Source of the DNA: Syntrophomonadaceae bacterium | GTDB taxonomy: Bacteria > Bacillota > Syntrophomonadia > Syntrophomonadales > DTU052 | Reading direction: 5' to 3' | Length of the DNA: 59,367 nucleotides | Assembly (NCBI GenBank): GCA_012728655.1 | Contig: JAAYEQ010000008.1 | Location: 1-59,367 of the forward strand | Shown: positions 11,991-56,513 of the stretch, piece by piece | How the letters are laid out: each line of letters begins with the position of its first letter | Numbering within the stretch: the first letter of the stretch is position 1 | The notes under the pieces: model-generated | The model's input: only the letters and a program-made list of their open reading frames with translations | The model's database searches: none | What the model was told of the DNA's origin: nothing | Made by a program: the position numbers and the translations under genes

Positions 11991-12782
11991 TCAGGATTGA
12001 CGGGCAACGGCTTTTGCTACCACTACAAAACGGCCATGATTGCCGTCGTTGGTACACGTGCAGAGGGTGATTAATTTGTCGCCGTACTCGGCGTCTACAC
12101 CGGTATCGTAAAGTGACAGGGCCTTGATGTTACGGATAAACGAGTCAAACTCCTCTTTGTTGCCGGCATCAATGAAATTGTAGAACTTAAACACGTTGTC
12201 CGATTTCCTGTACACCCGGCTGTAGAATACCGCGATGATTTCATAGCTGCCTTTGCCGTAAATGGTATCAAAGCGGATTATGCGGTGATTACGGTAATAA
12301 TCTTTATCCTTGTAGTTCAGCAGACTGCTGAACATGGAGCCGTTTGCTTTGTTGTGGCCGTAAATAATGATGTTGTCACTAACCGGATTGAAAGCACAAT
12401 CCGCGTCGACAAACAGGGTTCCATTAGAAGAACTTTTTCCATAGAAATCTCGATTAATATAGTATTCCTCGTCGTGGGGGGTATACATCACGGGGTAGTT
12501 GATAACGGTGCCTTCAATTTCAAGCCACCCGATAAAATCCGGGTTAGTATTGTACAGCTCTGCGTACTCTCTCAGGATTGGCTTCCCGTCGGCAGCGGTT
12601 ACATAGTCATGAACGGCTGGCTTCTTCCTGGCATTTGCTAAGTCGGCCAAGGTTTTTGCGTCCCGCAGGTTTTGGATGTGGCTTCCGAGCAGGACGGTGG
12701 CTGACAGAAAGAACAAACAAACCGCCGCGGTTATCATTATTGGTTTGGTATGGTGTATCAGTTCTGCAATTCTGTCCTTCAT
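11991..12782 (-). CDS. Class B-type sortase
   Basis: 263 residues. One N-terminal membrane helix (PIMITAAVCLFFLSATVLLG) anchors the enzyme outside. The catalytic set is visible: the His in IIIYGHNKANGSMF, the Cys in TLCTC (residues 239-243), and the Arg in GNHGRFVVVAK. NPDFIGWLEIEGTVINYPVM is the class B signature. Sortases cut a C-terminal sorting signal and attach the protein to peptidoglycan. The gene follows the SGNH hydrolase, which has the only sorting signal seen in this window. AAAGGTGG precedes the ATG. Confidence 0.93.
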   Translation of the reverse strand: MKDRIAELIHHTKPIMITAAVCLFFLSATVLLGSHIQNLRDAKTLADLANARKKPAVHDYVTAADGKPILREYAELYNTNPDFIGWLEIEGTVINYPVMYTPHDEEYYINRDFYGKSSSNGTLFVDADCAFNPVSDNIIIYGHNKANGSMFSSLLNYKDKDYYRNHRIIRFDTIYGKGSYEIIAVFYSRVYRKSDNVFKFYNFIDAGNKEEFDSFIRNIKALSLYDTGVDAEYGDKLITLCTCTNDGNHGRFVVVAKAVARQS

Positions 12783-12858: not shown

Positions 12859-14244
12859 TCAACTGCTCTCGGTTTTCCTGGTTTTGGCGGTCAAAGCCAT
12901 GACTGCAAGGGCGGATGCTGCCAAAAGCGCCCACCAAATGGCCATGCCGCCTCCGGTCTTGGGCACATCATCCAGTTCATCGGCAGCAGCCTGTTCCTTC
13001 GGAGTTTCCGTCTGTCGGTTCGAGGTTAAGAAGGCGGTCAGTTCCCTCTCGAAAACCGGTCCCCACCAAGCGGAATAGCCATGGGCGTTGGGATGTACAC
13101 CGTCAGCCATGTAGGTCTTGTATTCTTCGGTATTGTAGATTTTAGTCATCTCCGGATTGTTGTAAAGATCGATGACGAATATACCCCATTTTTTCTGAAC
13201 CTCCAACAGGGCTTCAACCATCTTTCCATAGTAGGTGCCATCATTGGAGTAGGTTGCGGAATCATAGTAGGTGCCGGTGTAGAACACAACCGGGCAATTC
13301 CAGGTTTTCGACGCGTAGGCGATTATGTATTCCATAGCGCCATAAATGGTGTGGGTGTCAAAGTCCTCAATATTCCTGCTGCTGCTCAAGGTGCCGAACG
13401 GCTTGTTAAACATGGCATCGTTGGTGGATAGCTGTACGATAAAAAGGTCCGGGCGCAGGTCGGTGGGTATAGCTTTCATTCTGGAGATATAAGAGGTGGC
13501 GTCGTCGTCAACCAGAGTGGTTGCGGAGACGGTATATTTGTAACTGACCAGAGCCGGGTGTTTTTCCTCCAAATAATCGGCCATAGAATAACCCTGTGCG
13601 CTCTGTCCGTAGGATACGGAGGAGCCAAGCCAGATAATTTCCAAACCGGAAAGGGGATCATTGGGGTCGACCGATTTTTCTTCGGGGATGACGCCGTCGT
13701 AACCAATGGGGACCTTGGCTCCGGCCGGATAAAGGCGGATATCACCAAGACAGGGGAGGAATGACTGTGTGTAAGTAGGTAATTTGAAACCGGGCAGGGT
13801 GGTGACTGTTATCGTGTCTCCCGCTTTGAGAGCGACGTTTTTCAGAGCCGGGAACACACCCCGGTCGTATAGGTCAGAGTAGTCAGGTTTCTGGCAGAAA
13901 CCGTATTCGATTATCGGTACCACCTCTTTTCCGTCATTTACGGAAATGCTGAACGGTGTGGTTCCGAATCCGACAAATCCGCGTGACACCTCCAGATAGA
14001 TGTCAAAGGTGCCGCTGACGCCGGCGGGTACTGTGTAGGTGGCGGTGGAGCCGGCCCCGAGATTGACAATATAATCAGTTTTCTCATCGTAAACGGTATT
14101 GTTCCCGTCATAGCCCAGGCCCTTGACTACCGCTTGGGCGCTGTCCAACGTGATGTAGGTTTCTGCAGCCCACGCGACCATGCACATGCTAAACACCAGT
14201 ACCAGCGACATGACTGCAACAACAAGGTTCCTTACTCTTATCAT
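12859..14244 (-). CDS. Secreted SGNH/GDSL hydrolase with VPKTG cell-wall sorting signal
   Basis: 461 residues: signal peptide (VAVMSLVLVFSMCMVAWA), an N-terminal beta-rich domain to about residue 195, then an SGNH hydrolase domain with block I in IIWLGSSVSYGQS, a block III-like asparagine in IVQLSTNDAM, and the C-terminal catalytic Asp/His in DGVHPNAHGYS. The end has a sorting signal: VPKTGGG, a hydrophobic helix and a basic tail (KTRKTESS). VPKTG departs from LPXTG in its first position, which fits a dedicated sortase, and one is encoded just downstream. Substrate probably an ester on a surface polysaccharide or an external lipid (inference). Confidence 0.88.
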   Translation of the reverse strand: MIRVRNLVVAVMSLVLVFSMCMVAWAAETYITLDSAQAVVKGLGYDGNNTVYDEKTDYIVNLGAGSTATYTVPAGVSGTFDIYLEVSRGFVGFGTTPFSISVNDGKEVVPIIEYGFCQKPDYSDLYDRGVFPALKNVALKAGDTITVTTLPGFKLPTYTQSFLPCLGDIRLYPAGAKVPIGYDGVIPEEKSVDPNDPLSGLEIIWLGSSVSYGQSAQGYSMADYLEEKHPALVSYKYTVSATTLVDDDATSYISRMKAIPTDLRPDLFIVQLSTNDAMFNKPFGTLSSSRNIEDFDTHTIYGAMEYIIAYASKTWNCPVVFYTGTYYDSATYSNDGTYYGKMVEALLEVQKKWGIFVIDLYNNPEMTKIYNTEEYKTYMADGVHPNAHGYSAWWGPVFERELTAFLTSNRQTETPKEQAAADELDDVPKTGGGMAIWWALLAASALAVMALTAKTRKTESS

Positions 14245-15437: not shown

Positions 15438-15465
15438 TTGATACGGCCTAATTCGGTGGTATAAT
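15438..15465 (+). promoter_or_regulatory. Sigma-A promoter of the candidate structured RNA
   Basis: TTGATA (15438-15443), 16-nt spacer, TATAAT (15460-15465). The predicted transcript start is near 15472. No open reading frame of note follows before the terminator at 15626-15657. Confidence 0.7.
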
Positions 15466-15471
15466 AATATT

Positions 15472-15657
15472 GTGAATATTGTGCCTTAGGTCGGTGCCCG
15501 TACCGCGGCAGCGAAATAATAAAATATATTTTCTGGAAAAATAGAGCGTCCGCAGGATGCAGCGAGCGATCGCTGACTCCCAGGCAGGGAAGGTACGGAA
15601 ACCTGCGGACACTCTATCAAAGTATAAACCCCGGACAGGAACGAATCCGGGGTTTTT
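15472..15657 (+). ncRNA. Candidate structured RNA, about 186 nt, with pseudoknot
   Basis: The transcript is bounded by a good promoter and an intrinsic terminator (AAACCCCGGA 15626-15635 / TCCGGGGTTT 15646-15655, T-run to 15657). A long stem pairs 15541-15556 with 15602-15617 (15 pairs, one mismatch). It encloses a hairpin CAGCGA-GCGA-TCGCTG (15560-15575) with a GNRA tetraloop and a small TCCC/GGGA hairpin (15578-15590). The junction segment GGTACGG (15592-15598) is fully complementary to CCGTACC upstream (15498-15504), making a pseudoknot. It fits no riboswitch class or housekeeping RNA I could recognise (6S, SRP, tmRNA, RNase P, TPP, SAM, cobalamin, c-di-GMP were considered). It may be a free sRNA or a riboswitch controlling the DUF3784 gene 122 bp downstream. 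Confidence 0.6.
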
Positions 15658-15779
15658 GAGTGCAGACGCTCCTTTGCCGGCAATCACTGTCACCGCTGCC
15701 GGGAATTGGAGTTAAATCGGCTGGAGGTTAATGGCGACGTTGGAGCGGGACACGCAATACCGGTAAGAGGAGTTTCGAT

Positions 15780-16526
15780 ATGGATCTTTTTATTGACTGG
15801 TTGGCAGTTTTCATAATAGTCGCTGTGGGCATCATGATTAAGTATTTTAAGATGTCCTGGCTTATTGCCGGCTACAATACATCGAGTGCCGAGGACCGCC
15901 GGGCGATGTCGGAGAAAGGTATCGAAGACTTTATCGGCAACAGTATGTTTGGCCTGGCTGCCATACTGGCGGGGGGCAATATAGGCAAATATCTGGGTTA
16001 TTATTTTGCGCAGACGGGATCCTGGATACTGTTTACAGTAGTGTTGGGATACGTAATAATCAGGGCTCAGAAGTATGTCCCGGATAAAACACCCGGGGTG
16101 TCAGAGAGGAAAAATTATAATACTGTCCTGATTCTGGCCGCATATCTGCTGGTGTTCGCGGTCGTGGCGGCAGGAATAATCTACGGCAGCCGGGAGTCTG
16201 CCGTGGAGATAGAAGGACACTGGATCAGGATCGGCGGCATATATTCAACTCGAATAGATATCAAAGAGGTCACGGATATTCGTATGGAGGATTCAATACC
16301 TGCTATTAAGAGCCGAACCAATGGCTATGCCTTCGGGGACACCCGTAAAGGGCACTTCCTCTTGCGGGACCTGGGGAAAGGGCGACTGTATATCCATTCC
16401 AACAAGGGACCGTTCATATACATCCTGACCGGTGACAGCTATACGATTATAAATTTTGATAGTCCTGCCAAGACCAGAAAACTCTTCGCCGAATTGTCTG
16501 AGCAGTGGAAGCTCCTTCCGAGATAA
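15780..16526 (+). CDS. DUF3784 / bacterial PH-like domain membrane protein
   Basis: 248 residues from ATG 15780 (AAGAGGAG upstream). Residues 1-100 match the DUF3784 layout: a membrane helix, then MSWLIAGYNTSSAEDRRAMSEKG, then two more helices. A fourth helix (VLILAAYLLVFAVVAAGII) leads to a 100-residue beta-rich C-terminal domain (IEGHWIRIGGIYSTRIDIKEVTDI...) resembling bacterial PH domains. Function unknown. It lies behind the structured RNA and its terminator, so its expression may depend on read-through. Confidence 0.7.
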   Translation: MDLFIDWLAVFIIVAVGIMIKYFKMSWLIAGYNTSSAEDRRAMSEKGIEDFIGNSMFGLAAILAGGNIGKYLGYYFAQTGSWILFTVVLGYVIIRAQKYVPDKTPGVSERKNYNTVLILAAYLLVFAVVAAGIIYGSRESAVEIEGHWIRIGGIYSTRIDIKEVTDIRMEDSIPAIKSRTNGYAFGDTRKGHFLLRDLGKGRLYIHSNKGPFIYILTGDSYTIINFDSPAKTRKLFAELSEQWKLLPR

Positions 16527-18176: not shown

Positions 18177-21100
18177 GTGGTTTTACCGGTGAACGGTAAG
18201 GGCGATTTTGATGAATACTTGCTGGACAACCTGAAGGAAAGGGCCAAAGAGCTCAACTGCCTTTATCAGGTGGATGAGATCTTGAATGATCAGAGATTGT
18301 CCCTGCCGGAGATGTTCAACCAGTTAACCATGGTTATTCCGTCAGGCTGGCAGTACCCTGACATCTGCAAAGCCCGCATTATATACGATAATCGCAGTTA
18401 CCAGACTCCTGGATTCTATTCGTCGCCCTACATGGAGAGCGTTCCTATCAAGCTTGACGGTCAGGTAGTGGGCAGAATCGAGGTTGTTTACACGGTGGCG
18501 GTGGATAAGGGTCCTGAGGGCTACTTCCTGGACAAAGAGCGAAAGCTGCTTAAGACCATCGCCGACCGGATTGAACACACCATCTTAAGGCGCCATATGG
18601 AGATGGTTCTGCAGGAATGGAACACTTCCCGGCAGGCTAACGGGGAACGGAAAGCCGGCAACGAGTGGATGATCATTGTCGATTTCCTGGGCAGCACGGA
18701 TCAAAGCCTGCTGCTGTATACCTGCAAGAAAATGGCCATTCATCTCTACCGGAGAGGGATAGAAGAAGCGGAAGAGGTGCTCCGCGACCTGGGTTACAGC
18801 CCCACCGGGGTCCTGACGGACCTGAACTATCCTACCCCTAAAATGTCGCTGGGAGATCTGACCGATATCAGCAACAGGACTTTCGAGATCGCCTCCCGCC
18901 ATTTGAGCGACAGCGAAATCTCCACCCGGCTCAGAGTATGGATTCAGGAGGCCAAGGACTACTCGCTGATCAAAGCGGTTAACAGCATAAATGTATCCGT
19001 GCGCGAAATAAGCAGGGTGATAAACCGTTACCGTTCTCTGATGGGAAGGAATAACTTATATTATTCTCCCATGGAGCACTGGCTGGTGGTCGCCCTGATC
19101 CGCCGCTTTCTGTCCGGCAAGCTTGAGTTCATCCGTGTAGCCAGACAGCACCTGCAGATAAGCGATTTTTCGGATATTGTTAACCGGCTGATTTTCCCCG
19201 AGGGCAGCCATGGGAAAATCGGAGGAAAGAGCACCGGGCTGTTCCTCGCCCAGCAGATAATTAAAAAGGCCAGCGAGGATCAGCCCTTGCTTAAATCCGT
19301 CAGGGTCCCGAAGACATGGTATATAACCACCGATGGGATGAGGGAGTTTCTGAACTACAACGACCTGGACGAGCTCAATGTTCAGAAATACAAGGAATTA
19401 TATGAGATAAGGATCGATTATCCCAATATCGTTCAGATCATGAAAAACTCGGAATTCCCGGAAGGGATGGTCAAAAGCCTGGCCATGGCCCTGGACGATT
19501 TGGGAGACAACCCGATAATTGTGCGAAGTTCCAGCCTTTTGGAAGACCAGTTTGGAGCGGCTTTCTCCGGAAAATACAAGAGCCTGTTCCTGGCCAACCA
19601 GGGCACCAAGGAGCAGCGTCTGGAGGCGCTTATGGATGCGATTGTCGAGGTCTACGCCTCAATCTACAATCCTGATTCTCTCCAGTACCGGGCTGAAAGA
19701 GGCCTGCTGGACTTCCAGGAAGAGATGGGAATCATGATCCAGGAAGTGGTTGGCACCAGGATCGGCCCTTACTACATGCCTCTCTATGCCGGGGTTGTGT
19801 TCAGCAACAACGAATTTCGGTGGTCACCCCGGATCAAGCGAGAGGATGGATTAATCCGTATGGTTATGGGTCTGGGCACCCGGGCGGTCGACCGCCTGAG
19901 CGATGATTTCCCGGTCCTGGTTTCACCCGGACAGCCCCGCCTGCGAGTGAATACCGTTCCGGAAGAGGTCAAGCGTTATTCGCCCAAAATGGTTGACGTT
20001 ATTAACCTCGAGAAGAACACCTTCGAAACCGTGGAGATTTCTTCACTCCTGAAGGAATACGGGCGTCAGATACCCGGTGTGCACCGGATCGTTTCCACCT
20101 ACCAGCCCGACCATATCAAAAAACCCCTGGCTTTTGACCTGGACTTCGAACGGGACGATATGGTGGTGACCTTTGACGGCCTGATAGCGGATACCTCATT
20201 TATCAAACTGGTCAATGCCATTAAAGACCTGCTTCAGGAAAAGCTGGGGACACCGGTAGACCTGGAGTTTGCCTCGGATGGGGAATACTTTTACCTGCTG
20301 CAGTGCCGGCCCCAGAGTTACAGCAGGGAAAATGCACCGGCTCCCATCCCCCGAGACCTCCCGGCTCAGGATATCATTTTCTCTGCCAAGCGATACATCT
20401 CAAACGGCAGCATACAGGATATTTCCCATATTGTCTATGTGGACCCGGAGGAATATAACCGAATTCGGGATTACAACGACCTGCGCAATGTGGGCCGAGT
20501 CGTGGGGATGCTGAACTTTTTGCTTCCCAAGCACCGTTTCGTGCTCATGGGACCCGGGCGCTGGGGGAGCAGGGGAGATATAAAACTGGGAGTGCAGGTG
20601 AGCTATGCGGACATTAACAATACCGCGGCCCTGATTGAGATCGCCACCCCCAGGGCCAACTATGTACCGGAACTCTCCTTTGGCACTCACTTTTTCCAGG
20701 ATCTGGTAGAGGCCAATATTCGCTACCTCCCGCTTTACCCCGAGGATCAAGGCGTGGTATTCAACCATTTGTTCCTGAAACGATCCGAGAACATCCTGGG
20801 AGAGCTCCTGCCCGAGTATAAGTACCTGGAAGACGTAATCAGGGTAATTGACGTGCCGAAAGTAACCGGGGGCCGGGTGCTCAGGATATCAATGAATGCC
20901 GAATTGGAGGAGGCTCTGGGCTATCTGAGCTCTCATTCCGGTGAAAGCGACCGACTATATACGGAAGCTGCTCAAGAAGAGGCATCCCCGGGCGGTGATG
21001 CGTATGTCGACGAGCGGTTCTGGCGGTGGCGCCATTACATGGCGGAACGCATTGCCGCCCGCCTCGATCCTGCCCGATTCGGGGTTAAGAGTATCTATCT

Positions 21101-21383
21101 TTTTGGCAGCACCAACAACGGCACCGCCGGACCGGGGAGCGACATCGACCTCCTGATACATTTTGGGGGAAACGAGCAGCAACGTCAGGATCTGCTGAAC
21201 TGGCTGAACGGTTGGAGTGTGTCTCTGGCGGAAATGAATTACCTGAAGACCGGTTATCAGTCGGATGGGCTGCTTGATATCCATATCATAACCGACGAGG
21301 ATATTGCCCGGAAAACGGCTTATGCCTCCAAAATCGGGGCTGTTACCGACCCCGCTTTACCTCTGAAGATGAAAGAAGGATGA
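18177..21383 (+). CDS. PEP-synthase-like ATP-grasp protein fused to a nucleotidyltransferase domain
   Basis: 1068 residues. Residues about 1-140 look like a GAF-type sensor (LLKTIADRIEHTILRR ends it). Residues about 340-730 match the ATP-binding half of PEP synthase/pyruvate phosphate dikinase: SHGKIGGKSTGLFLAQQII, NPIIVRSSSLLEDQFGAAFSGKY, and LEFASDGEYFYLLQCRPQS. The phosphohistidine and PEP-binding domains of true PEP synthases are not seen. A conserved extra region follows (FVLMGPGRWGSRGD). The last about 120 residues carry a minimal nucleotidyltransferase motif, GSTNNGTAGPGSDIDLLI, with the usual GS and D-x-D. It could phosphorylate or nucleotidylate a partner. Target unknown; the adjacent glutamate dehydrogenase is a candidate by position only. 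Confidence 0.75.
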   Translation: MVLPVNGKGDFDEYLLDNLKERAKELNCLYQVDEILNDQRLSLPEMFNQLTMVIPSGWQYPDICKARIIYDNRSYQTPGFYSSPYMESVPIKLDGQVVGRIEVVYTVAVDKGPEGYFLDKERKLLKTIADRIEHTILRRHMEMVLQEWNTSRQANGERKAGNEWMIIVDFLGSTDQSLLLYTCKKMAIHLYRRGIEEAEEVLRDLGYSPTGVLTDLNYPTPKMSLGDLTDISNRTFEIASRHLSDSEISTRLRVWIQEAKDYSLIKAVNSINVSVREISRVINRYRSLMGRNNLYYSPMEHWLVVALIRRFLSGKLEFIRVARQHLQISDFSDIVNRLIFPEGSHGKIGGKSTGLFLAQQIIKKASEDQPLLKSVRVPKTWYITTDGMREFLNYNDLDELNVQKYKELYEIRIDYPNIVQIMKNSEFPEGMVKSLAMALDDLGDNPIIVRSSSLLEDQFGAAFSGKYKSLFLANQGTKEQRLEALMDAIVEVYASIYNPDSLQYRAERGLLDFQEEMGIMIQEVVGTRIGPYYMPLYAGVVFSNNEFRWSPRIKREDGLIRMVMGLGTRAVDRLSDDFPVLVSPGQPRLRVNTVPEEVKRYSPKMVDVINLEKNTFETVEISSLLKEYGRQIPGVHRIVSTYQPDHIKKPLAFDLDFERDDMVVTFDGLIADTSFIKLVNAIKDLLQEKLGTPVDLEFASDGEYFYLLQCRPQSYSRENAPAPIPRDLPAQDIIFSAKRYISNGSIQDISHIVYVDPEEYNRIRDYNDLRNVGRVVGMLNFLLPKHRFVLMGPGRWGSRGDIKLGVQVSYADINNTAALIEIATPRANYVPELSFGTHFFQDLVEANIRYLPLYPEDQGVVFNHLFLKRSENILGELLPEYKYLEDVIRVIDVPKVTGGRVLRISMNAELEEALGYLSSHSGESDRLYTEAAQEEASPGGDAYVDERFWRWRHYMAERIAARLDPARFGVKSIYLFGSTNNGTAGPGSDIDLLIHFGGNEQQRQDLLNWLNGWSVSLAEMNYLKTGYQSDGLLDIHIITDEDIARKTAYASKIGAVTDPALPLKMKEG

Positions 21384-53731: not shown

Positions 53732-53864
53732 TTACATTGTGTCTGCGACAAAACTAACCGAATCGGGGGATAAACTTGCCAAAAAGAAAAACTTGCCATA
53801 TGAAAGGATATCAGTCATAATATAACAAGTGTCGACAAAGCAGAAGATAGTATCGAATATCCCG

Positions 53865-53945
53865 TCGAAAATGGCAAACCTGTTGAAAAGCAGGGACGCA
53901 AAACTATAGGGCCTACGGGTTTTTACCCATGGCAGCCAGTTGCCG
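53865..53945 (+). promoter_or_regulatory. Cyclic di-GMP-I (GEMM) riboswitch
   Basis: The conserved parts appear in order: GGCAAACC (53873-53880), GAAA-type turn, GGGACGCAAA (53893-53902), GGGCCTACGG, and ATGGCAGCC...GTTGCCG. These match the GEMM-I aptamer core. It is followed by AAAGGGG, a run of seven T and the ATG of the HD-GYP gene, so c-di-GMP binding can expose or hide the ribosome site, or affect termination at the T-run. Confidence 0.92.
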
Positions 53946-53959
53946 AAAGGGGTTTTTTT

Positions 53960-54655
53960 ATGTTCCCAATTGCCTCGTCGTGTAAGAACTCCTTATTGCT
54001 GATTCAGCAGATGCTTCTAAATGCACAGATTGACAATAATGATGTAGCAAAATTAGAAAAAACCACCGGGATACAAATCCACGAGGTAGGCAGGATTTTA
54101 GACGATATCCAGGATTATCATCGCGGAGTATACCGGCATTCTCTCAATGTCGGATACCTTGCCGCGCAACTTGCCATAAGGCTGGGCCTGTCGAAACAAG
54201 AGGTTTATATAATAAGCATTGGAGCACTGTTCCACGATATCGGGAAAACAAGAATACCGCATTCGATTCTTGACAAACCGGGTAAATTAGGAAAAGACGA
54301 ATGGGAGTTAATCAAAGAACACCCCAGAATAGGCTTTAGATTAATTTCTCAATACGACTGGGCTCACCAGTTGGAGCCCATGATACTGCTGCACCACGAG
54401 CGTCTCGACGGGAAAGGATATTACTCTGTTGACCCACGGAAAATACCGCTTTCCGCTCGGATGGTTAGTGTTGCCGATGCATTTGATGCAATAACCTCTG
54501 ATCGTCCCTATCAAAAGAAGGAAAACATAAACAACTGCTGGGCAGAAATGGAAAGATGCAGTGGAACCCAATTCGATCCGGATTTGCTGCGACTGTTTCG
54601 CTCCATCATTGGCGATATTGACAAGAATCGTGTCAAGCATATGCCTACCTGGTAA
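53960..54655 (+). CDS. HD-GYP domain cyclic di-GMP phosphodiesterase
   Basis: 231 residues from ATG 53960 (AAAGGGG seven bases upstream). No membrane helix. HD motif in ALFHDIGKTRIPHSILDKPGKL, then HPRIGFRLI, and the GYP region as HHERLDGKGYYSVDP; the last residue is Tyr in place of Pro, as in some active members. It should linearise c-di-GMP. Its own mRNA carries a c-di-GMP riboswitch, giving a direct feedback loop. Confidence 0.93.
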   Translation: MFPIASSCKNSLLLIQQMLLNAQIDNNDVAKLEKTTGIQIHEVGRILDDIQDYHRGVYRHSLNVGYLAAQLAIRLGLSKQEVYIISIGALFHDIGKTRIPHSILDKPGKLGKDEWELIKEHPRIGFRLISQYDWAHQLEPMILLHHERLDGKGYYSVDPRKIPLSARMVSVADAFDAITSDRPYQKKENINNCWAEMERCSGTQFDPDLLRLFRSIIGDIDKNRVKHMPTW

Positions 54656-54810
54656 CAGCCGGAGTTTCCTTCAATTTCTTGATACATGCAGATTACACGG
54701 AGAAAAAGCAGGAAAACCGCATCAATTTGGCTAATATGGTCTTTACACTCTCGAAAAGGGTATTGGCGAACTGGGCAACCGAGGTAAGCTTATCACTCTT
54801 ATGGGAGATA

Positions 54811-55251
54811 ATGCGAACTGTTATGAAAAAAATGCTTAAATGGGCTGCCGTATTAGCGGGCTTAGGGTTTTTCGGGATGCTGCTGGTCAAGGTGCCGGCC
54901 TTGGGTTTGGCAGAGGCGGAATTCTGCGGCAAGTGTCACGCCATGGATTATCAAGTGTACACCTATCTGCACTCTCCGCATGCCCAAGGAGCCAATTGCG
55001 GAGACTGTCACGATCCGCACGGTCTGGTCACAGGCAGCATTTATGCCGTGTATACCGGAAGCCGGGATGTATTTCGCGTCGTTACCAATACCGTTCCTAC
55101 CGAAATTCGAGCCACTGGTCTCAGCAAAAAGGTGATACAGGGCAATTGTCTGCGCTGTCACGGTGATATCATGGGAGACATTGGCGATACCAGCCAAGAT
55201 GGCGGCGTCTATTGTTTCCATTGCCATAGGAATATTGTCCATCCCAGATAG
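54811..55251 (+). CDS. nrfH: Cytochrome c nitrite reductase small subunit (tetraheme NrfH)
   Basis: 146 residues from ATG 54811. One N-terminal helix (AAVLAGLGFFGMLLVKV) anchors a domain with four heme sites: CGKCH, CGDCH, CLRCH, CFHCH. NrfH takes electrons from menaquinol and feeds NrfA. GGGAG stands 3 bases before the chosen ATG; ATG 54823 is possible. The frame stays open upstream to 54679, but that part is unlike NrfH. Confidence 0.93.
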   Translation: MRTVMKKMLKWAAVLAGLGFFGMLLVKVPALGLAEAEFCGKCHAMDYQVYTYLHSPHAQGANCGDCHDPHGLVTGSIYAVYTGSRDVFRVVTNTVPTEIRATGLSKKVIQGNCLRCHGDIMGDIGDTSQDGGVYCFHCHRNIVHPR

Positions 55252-55268
55252 TTAAGGAGGGGATCTGT

Positions 55269-56513
55269 TTGGAAGCTTCGAGAATCAAGCAATTGGTCGC
55301 GCTGGGGGTCGTTGCCATAGTCGTAATGGTCTCCGCTTGTGTTTTCTTTTTCAACCGCAACAATCAGGTCGCCTTGGAAGGTCCGCAGGGTGAGATAGCG
55401 GCTGATGAAACCAATTCAGCTGCGTGGGGTCAGTTCTACCCTGCCCATTGGGATAGTTACCAGGACAATATGGCAAATACATTAAATCCGTCTCATTTCG
55501 AAACCAAGCCTTATATGCAAATCATTTACGCGGGAACCGGTTTTGCCGCTGAGTTCAACGAACCAAGAGGCCATGTCTATTCCATCGAGGATGTAAAATC
55601 AATCGATCCTGCGCGGCGGAAAGCAGGTGCATCGTGTTTTACCTGTAAGTCAACCCAGGCCCCGGGGATGATAAAAGAATACGGGGACCATTATTATCTT
55701 ATGTCCTTCGACGAAATGAAGGATAAGATCACCGAGCCTATCGGCTGCCTGGATTGTCATGATCCGAAAACCATGAAATTGAGGCTGACCCGCCCGGCTC
55801 TGATCGAAGCTCTCGAGCGTCAGGGACGCAGTATTGACAAACTCACCAATCAGGAAATGCGCAGTTTGGTCTGTGCTCAGTGTCATGTAACCTACTATTT
55901 CCATCCTGATACCAAAGAAGTCACCTTTCCCTGGGATAAGGGCTTAACGGCTCAAGAGATATTGACCTATTATGATGAACATAATTTCAGCGAATGGGTT
56001 CATCCTGTAGCTGGAACCAATCTGGTGAAAGCCCGCCATGCGGATTATGAAACCTTCATGGGCAGCACTCACCAATCGGCAGGGTTGGCATGCGCTGATT
56101 GCCATATGCCCTATATCACCGTGGGCAATAAGAAAATATCTTCCCATGTCTGGCAGAGCCCTCTCAACAACATAGAACAAAGCTGCACCGCTTGCCACCG
56201 TAATGGAGCCGAGTGGTTGAAAAATCGGGTGCGAACCATTCAGGCCCAGGTCAAGCAGACTCAGGACCTGGCCGGAGCGGCGGTGGTGGAGGCTATTAAC
56301 GAATTGAAGATTTCTCGTGAAACTCCCACGGTTGACAAAACCAAGCTTCAGGAAGCGATGGCCTTACATCGGGAAGCCCAGTGGTATCTGGATTACGCCA
56401 TGGTAACCAATGGCTATGGTTTCCATAACCCGACGGCAACCCTGAACAATCTCAGTATCGCTATCGACAAAGCACACAAAGCCATAGCAAAGGCGCGGGA
56501 AGCCAGGAGATAA
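55269..56513 (+). CDS. nrfA: Cytochrome c nitrite reductase catalytic subunit (pentaheme NrfA)
   Basis: 414 residues from TTG 55269 (AAGGAGGGG upstream). Signal-anchor (LVALGVVAIVVMVSACVFFF), then five heme sites: the catalytic CFTCK with Lys as heme ligand, CLDCH, CAQCH, CADCH and CTACH. The chain includes SSHVWQSPLNNI, conserved near the active site. It reduces nitrite to ammonium with six electrons outside the membrane, for respiration or detoxification of nitrite and NO. It follows nrfH by 17 bp. Confidence 0.96.
   Translation: MEASRIKQLVALGVVAIVVMVSACVFFFNRNNQVALEGPQGEIAADETNSAAWGQFYPAHWDSYQDNMANTLNPSHFETKPYMQIIYAGTGFAAEFNEPRGHVYSIEDVKSIDPARRKAGASCFTCKSTQAPGMIKEYGDHYYLMSFDEMKDKITEPIGCLDCHDPKTMKLRLTRPALIEALERQGRSIDKLTNQEMRSLVCAQCHVTYYFHPDTKEVTFPWDKGLTAQEILTYYDEHNFSEWVHPVAGTNLVKARHADYETFMGSTHQSAGLACADCHMPYITVGNKKISSHVWQSPLNNIEQSCTACHRNGAEWLKNRVRTIQAQVKQTQDLAGAAVVEAINELKISRETPTVDKTKLQEAMALHREAQWYLDYAMVTNGYGFHNPTATLNNLSIAIDKAHKAIAKAREARR

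What the first reader, a model, noticed from the sequence alone, without database searches (positions are those of the whole stretch)
15438..15657. Pseudoknotted structured RNA with its own promoter and terminator
Seen: TTGATA-16-TATAAT, then a 186-nt transcript with a 15-bp stem closing a junction of two hairpins (one capped by a GCGA tetraloop), a 7-nt junction segment exactly complementary to an upstream loop, and an intrinsic terminator. It matches no RNA class I can recall. Inference: a new sRNA, or a riboswitch in front of the DUF3784/PH membrane gene.
Basis: partly seen in the sequence, partly recalled or inferred. Interest (0 to 1): 0.75.

Follow-up and report, generated by a model that had tools for sequence, protein, structure and literature searches.

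The report
Genus-restricted structured small RNA gene
A short stretch between two genes encodes what looks like a real small RNA with its own start and stop signals; its folded core has been kept almost unchanged in all four known genomes of one genus of syntrophic Clostridia-type bacteria, but it matches no catalogued RNA family and its job is unknown.

Summary
Window 15438-15657 holds a sigma-70-type promoter (TTGATA-16-TATAAT), a three-way-junction RNA core (15-bp P1, a GNRA-capped P2, a short UCCC/GGGA P3, an 11-nt joining strand) and an intrinsic terminator. The core folds far better than shuffles (z = -5.2). It matches no Rfam family, even at E <= 10. It is present in all four genomes of its genus and was found nowhere else. 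Against the most distant homologue the core differs at 10 of 89 positions, while 61% of four-fold degenerate sites in the neighbouring gene differ. Changes avoid paired positions, and the tetraloop varies only within GNRA, so selection acts on RNA structure. However, the stems are almost invariant and no pair shows a compensatory change. The proposed 7-nt pseudoknot is not conserved. The riboswitch reading lacks support: no conserved antiterminator was found, and DUF3784 genes in other genera lack the element. The RNA-DUF3784 pairing does survive rearrangement on both flanks within the genus. Best reading: an independently transcribed small RNA of a new, genus-restricted family, probably held by a protein partner or trans targets. 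A cis-acting leader of the DUF3784/PH gene is the main rival.

The parts
15438..15465 (+). sigma-70-type promoter TTGATA-16-TATAAT
   Evidence: Consensus scan, 11/12. The TTGATA and -10 region are conserved in G002 and G003 (TTTAAA in G003); TATAAT is kept in G001.
15471..15534 (+). variable 5' segment of the transcript; a local hairpin is predicted in each species but its sequence is not conserved; contains the CCGTACC 7-mer of the proposed pseudoknot (15498-15504)
   Evidence: Not significantly structured alone (z -1.24); complementarity to the junction not kept in homologues.
15535..15623 (+). conserved RNA core (CM R1, 89 positions): three-way junction
   Evidence: Core fold z -5.22; CM hits only in 4 of 4 genus genomes, 107-117 bits.
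15541..15556 (+). P1, 5' strand (15 pairs with 15602-15617, one internal mismatch)
15560..15575 (+). P2 hairpin with GNRA tetraloop (GCGA here; GGAA and GCAA in relatives)
   Evidence: Alignment A5, pair counts.
15578..15590 (+). P3 hairpin UCCC-AGGCA-GGGA
15591..15601 (+). invariant purine-rich joining strand AGGUACGGAAA between P3 and P1 (one inserted A in G001)
15602..15617 (+). P1, 3' strand
15626..15657 (+). intrinsic terminator (10-bp stem in the MFE, T5)
   Evidence: Fold. A terminator hairpin followed by a T run is kept in all four genomes although the stem sequence differs in G001.
15780..16526 (+). downstream gene: DUF3784 + weak C-terminal bPH_5, 248-aa membrane protein; constant neighbour of the RNA within the genus
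   Evidence: Pfam; homologous loci.

Best explanation
A small non-coding RNA gene of a new, genus-restricted family. RNA polymerase starts a few bases after TATAAT and stops at the terminator, giving a transcript of about 185 nt (inferred from sequence). Its 3' half folds into a rigid three-way junction (P1/P2/P3) with a GNRA loop and an invariant purine-rich joining strand (shown by folding and comparison). The near-invariance of both stem strands and junction suggests that a protein partner or base-paired trans targets read this core, so that it acts as a regulatory RNA rather than as a ligand-switched leader (inferred). Hfq is encoded in the genome and could be the chaperone (inferred). Which molecule it binds is not shown.
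For: Promoter and terminator flank the core in all four genomes. Fold z -5.22. Core differs at 10/89 positions from G001 while 61% of four-fold sites in DUF3784 differ (binomial p about 1e-22). Variable positions avoid paired columns (3/50 paired versus 12/40 unpaired, Fisher p = 0.0036). The tetraloop varies as GCGA/GGAA/GCAA, always GNRA, and only on the + strand. Not coding: the only + strand ATG in the core (15557) is absent in G001 and G002, and the core has a 1-nt insertion in G001. No Rfam match of note at E <= 10; the genome's 6S RNA lies elsewhere. No conserved pairing partner for the terminator arm. Hfq gene present.
Against: No expression data. No compensatory base changes, so helices rest on thermodynamics and on where changes fall. 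Only one deep comparison (G001); the other three genomes are closely related. The RNA always sits upstream of DUF3784, including in a rearranged context, and that gene shows no clear sigma-70 promoter between terminator and start codon in the window, which would fit a cis role. No trans target or protein partner was tested.
Confidence: 0.55

Rival explanations
1. A cis-acting leader (riboswitch or protein-controlled attenuator): the core senses a ligand or protein and sets how much polymerase passes the terminator into the DUF3784/PH membrane gene.
For: RNA and DUF3784 stay adjacent and co-oriented in all four genomes, even in G001 where both outer neighbours differ and in G003 where the upstream neighbour differs. 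No clear sigma-70 promoter was found between the terminator and DUF3784 in the window. A compact three-way junction with an invariant joining strand and GNRA loop is aptamer-like (inference).
Against: No conserved antiterminator: the terminator's 5' arm pairs with different or no partners in the four nascent transcripts. The terminator-to-ATG spacer is about 125 nt in the window and about 240 nt in G001 and unalignable there. DUF3784 loci from other genera, including the 51% identical one in G004, lack the element. Stems of aptamers normally vary with compensation; these do not.
Confidence: 0.3
2. A DNA-level element: the near-perfect inverted repeat (P1) and its interior are conserved as a protein-binding, recombination or chromosome-structure site, and the RNA is incidental.
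For: Both arms of the 15-bp repeat are almost invariant with no compensatory change, as expected for a DNA site.
Against: Changes inside fit an RNA on the + strand (GNRA-only variation, changes in loops); promoter and terminator are kept on that strand. Single copy in the genome and no match in phage or plasmid records, so it is not a transposon end or a typical repeat.
Confidence: 0.1
3. A pseudoknotted RNA as first proposed, with CCGUACC (15498-15504) pairing to GGUACGG (15592-15598).
For: Exact 7-nt complementarity in the window; reached in 1.6% of shuffles of the 5' segment. With G-U pairs, an alternative UUGUGCCUU pairing exists in the window and, one pair shorter, in G002.
Against: Only 4, 3 and 4 nt of complementarity remain in G002, G003 and G001 although GGUACGG itself is invariant; the 5' segment is the fastest-evolving part of the transcript.
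Confidence: 0.05

Closest known systems
6S RNA (RF00013)
   Same: Similar transcript length; stand-alone small RNA gene.
   Different: The genome has its own 6S RNA on another contig; this core is a three-way junction, not a long hairpin with a central bubble; no Rfam match.
Orphan riboswitch candidates and known three-way-junction aptamers with GNRA loops (for example c-di-GMP-I, RF01051)
   Same: Compact junction with invariant joining strand and GNRA-capped arm, followed by an intrinsic terminator, upstream of a gene.
   Different: No covariance-model match, no conserved antiterminator, stems nearly invariant, one neighbour gene only. The same window does contain a genuine c-di-GMP-I riboswitch, which Rfam finds at 81 bits.
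Hfq-associated intergenic sRNAs of Firmicutes
   Same: Own promoter, about 185 nt, Rho-independent terminator, A/U-rich single-stranded 5' part (AAAUAAUA-like, not in G001); Hfq gene in the genome.
   Different: The most conserved part is a rigid junction, not a C-rich seed; targets unknown; Hfq binding untested.
raiA/ROOL/OLE-type structured ncRNAs (recalled, not compared individually)
   Same: Highly conserved, structured, stand-alone RNAs of unknown or recently found function in Firmicutes.
   Different: Much smaller core and narrower distribution; none of their models matches.

Membership tests
Any Rfam 15 family | Covariance-model score at or above the gathering cut-off | tested here: not met
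   best sub-threshold matches are terminator look-alikes (TEG147, 18.6 bits against a cut-off of 56.1).
Intergenic small RNA gene | Own promoter and intrinsic terminator, conserved in homologues | tested here: met
   (sequence level only).
Intergenic small RNA gene | Non-coding | tested here: met
   The ATG at 15557 is absent in G001 and G002; the 5' segment has frame-breaking length changes and the core a 1-nt insertion.
Intergenic small RNA gene | A discrete transcript is made | not testable with these tools
   No RNA-seq available.
Conserved RNA secondary structure (R-scape style) | Compensatory changes in stems | tested here: not met
   0 pairs with a change on both sides; 2 pairs with a one-sided G-U change; 98% of cells paired. 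Low power: 4 sequences, stems almost invariant.
Riboswitch / attenuator of DUF3784 | Alternative antiterminator overlapping the terminator | tested here: not met
   No shared partner for the terminator 5' arm in four nascent transcripts.
Riboswitch / attenuator of DUF3784 | Element recurs upstream of DUF3784 in other genera | tested here: not met
   21 DUF3784 loci from other genera searched with filters off gave nothing convincing.
Riboswitch / attenuator of DUF3784 | Ligand binding | not testable with these tools
   Needs in-line probing.
Pseudoknotted RNA | Loop-junction complementarity kept in homologues | tested here: not met
   7 nt in the window; 4, 3 and 4 nt in the homologues.
6S RNA | RF00013 model match | tested here: not met
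   The genome's 6S RNA is at G000:C21, not here.
Hfq-dependent sRNA | Binding to Hfq and trans base-pairing to mRNAs | not tested
   Only the presence of an Hfq gene was checked.

The most novel reading that the evidence does not exclude
The core is a new aptamer or ribonucleoprotein-binding RNA class: a three-way junction whose invariant AGGUACGGAAA strand and GNRA arm form a binding pocket for an unknown ligand or protein, tied to the function of an uncharacterised DUF3784/PH membrane protein in syntrophic bacteria.
Probability: 0.25. Interest if true: 0.7.

Novelty: new member of a known kind. Interest (0 to 1): 0.42.

Why it matters
It is a well-bounded, previously uncatalogued structured RNA that is more constrained than the protein-coding gene beside it, in syntrophic bacteria whose RNA regulation appears little studied. 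If it proves to be an aptamer, it would give a first handle on the function of a DUF3784/PH membrane protein. As things stand it is one more genus-restricted orphan RNA.

Tried and rejected
Rfam at gathering and at E <= 10: nothing of note. Phage and plasmid collections: no match. Conserved-motif pattern over 84,980 species genomes: 33 hits, of which the covariance model supports only the three genus relatives; the Archangium (L080) and other weak hits are partial matches in GC-rich DNA and were treated as chance. Viral contigs: hits not supported by the model where tested; a third, looser pattern gave over 120 hits and only four of those loci were checked. Weak CM hits in G006, G019, G028, G050 and G082 were partial, single-hairpin or not inspected further, and were not accepted. 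Two early homologue alignments (A1, A4) were spoiled by strand and coordinate errors and replaced by A2 and A5. The idea of a 6S RNA was rejected. CsrA-type GGA motifs were considered and dropped because the AGGAUG near P1 is not conserved. Genome-wide target prediction was not done: the whole genome was not available as a file and short-pattern searches would be swamped by chance. The literature search found no paper naming DUF3784; two others gave nothing relevant by title and abstract.

Full report
Observation. The whole stretch folds at z = -4.67 and the core (15532-15621) at z = -5.22, with no shuffle as stable; the 5' segment alone is not special (z = -1.24). Rfam has no match at the gathering cut-off, and at E <= 10 only far-below-threshold chance matches.

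Distribution. The element is single copy in its genome. A covariance model (R1) scores these four at 107-117 bits and finds no convincing match among the other class members, a sample of 399 phylum genomes, or 30 genomes of two other classes. A motif pattern over 84,980 species genomes adds nothing the model supports. Metagenome collections could not be scanned, and the larger genome searches used strict filters, so distant, diverged relatives may have been missed.

Selection. Between the window and G001 the neighbouring DUF3784 protein is 60% identical and 61% of four-fold degenerate sites differ, while the RNA core differs at 10 of 89 positions (p about 1e-22). The other pairs are close (15-28% of four-fold sites differ against 4-8% of core positions) and add less. 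Variable columns fall mostly outside helices (3/50 paired against 12/40 unpaired, Fisher p = 0.0036). The P2 loop is GCGA, GGAA or GCAA, always GNRA when read on the + strand. Promoter and terminator are kept on the same strand; the G001 terminator has a different stem sequence but still forms. The element is not coding: the ATG at 15557 is missing in two relatives and length changes break any frame.

Limits of the structural proof. No pair shows a change on both sides; 98% of cells are paired and two pairs vary by a G-U change. Invariance of both strands is itself informative: it suggests that sequence, not just pairing, is recognised.

Pseudoknot. GGUACGG (15592-15598) is invariant but its upstream partner is not: the longest complement in the 5' segment is 7 nt in the window and 4, 3 and 4 nt in G002, G003 and G001; 1.6% of shuffles of the window's 5' segment reach 7 nt. 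I do not accept the pseudoknot.

Context. The RNA is 5' of a DUF3784/bPH gene in all four genomes. In G003 the upstream neighbour differs (a 3D-domain-like protein, by eye, rather than the VTT/DedA gene) while glutamate dehydrogenase still follows; in G001 both outer neighbours differ. The pair therefore travels as a unit. Against a switch: the terminator-ATG spacer is about 125 nt here and about 240 nt and unalignable in G001; the terminator's 5' arm has no shared alternative partner in the nascent transcripts; DUF3784 loci in other genera have nothing comparable. For a cis link: no clear sigma-70 promoter lies between the terminator and DUF3784 in the window.

Conclusion. Shown: a conserved, strand-specific, non-coding structured element with promoter and terminator, new to Rfam and restricted, as far as could be searched, to one genus. 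Inferred: it is transcribed as a small RNA of about 185 nt and read by a protein or trans targets (0.55); a leader of DUF3784 remains possible (0.30). The genome encodes Hfq and its 6S RNA is elsewhere.

Noticed in passing
window 53863-53947 (+), with genes 53960-56513 (+): A c-di-GMP-I riboswitch (81 bits) directly upstream of an HD-domain (HD_5) gene followed by NapC/NirT-type and cytochrome c552 genes (nrfHA-like), suggesting c-di-GMP control of nitrite-reductase-type cytochromes.
   Followed up: partly
window 18177-21383 (+): A 1068-aa protein joins a pyruvate-phosphate-dikinase ATP-binding domain to a C-terminal nucleotidyltransferase domain, an unusual pairing.
   Followed up: no
window 11991-12782 (-) and 12859-14244 (-): A sortase gene next to a GDSL-lipase protein with a C-terminal transmembrane, sortase-signal-like tail (PKTGG).
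   Followed up: no
L024 2229-2470 (G001): In G001 the spacer between the RNA terminator and DUF3784 is longer and carries ACACGTACCGG, with 6 nt complementary to the invariant GGUACG of the RNA; could be chance.
   Followed up: no
window 15656-15779: The terminator-to-DUF3784 spacer has stretches similar in the window, G002 and G003 (e.g. AATCGGCTGGAG) but no recognisable sigma-70 promoter; its role is unexplained.
   Followed up: partly
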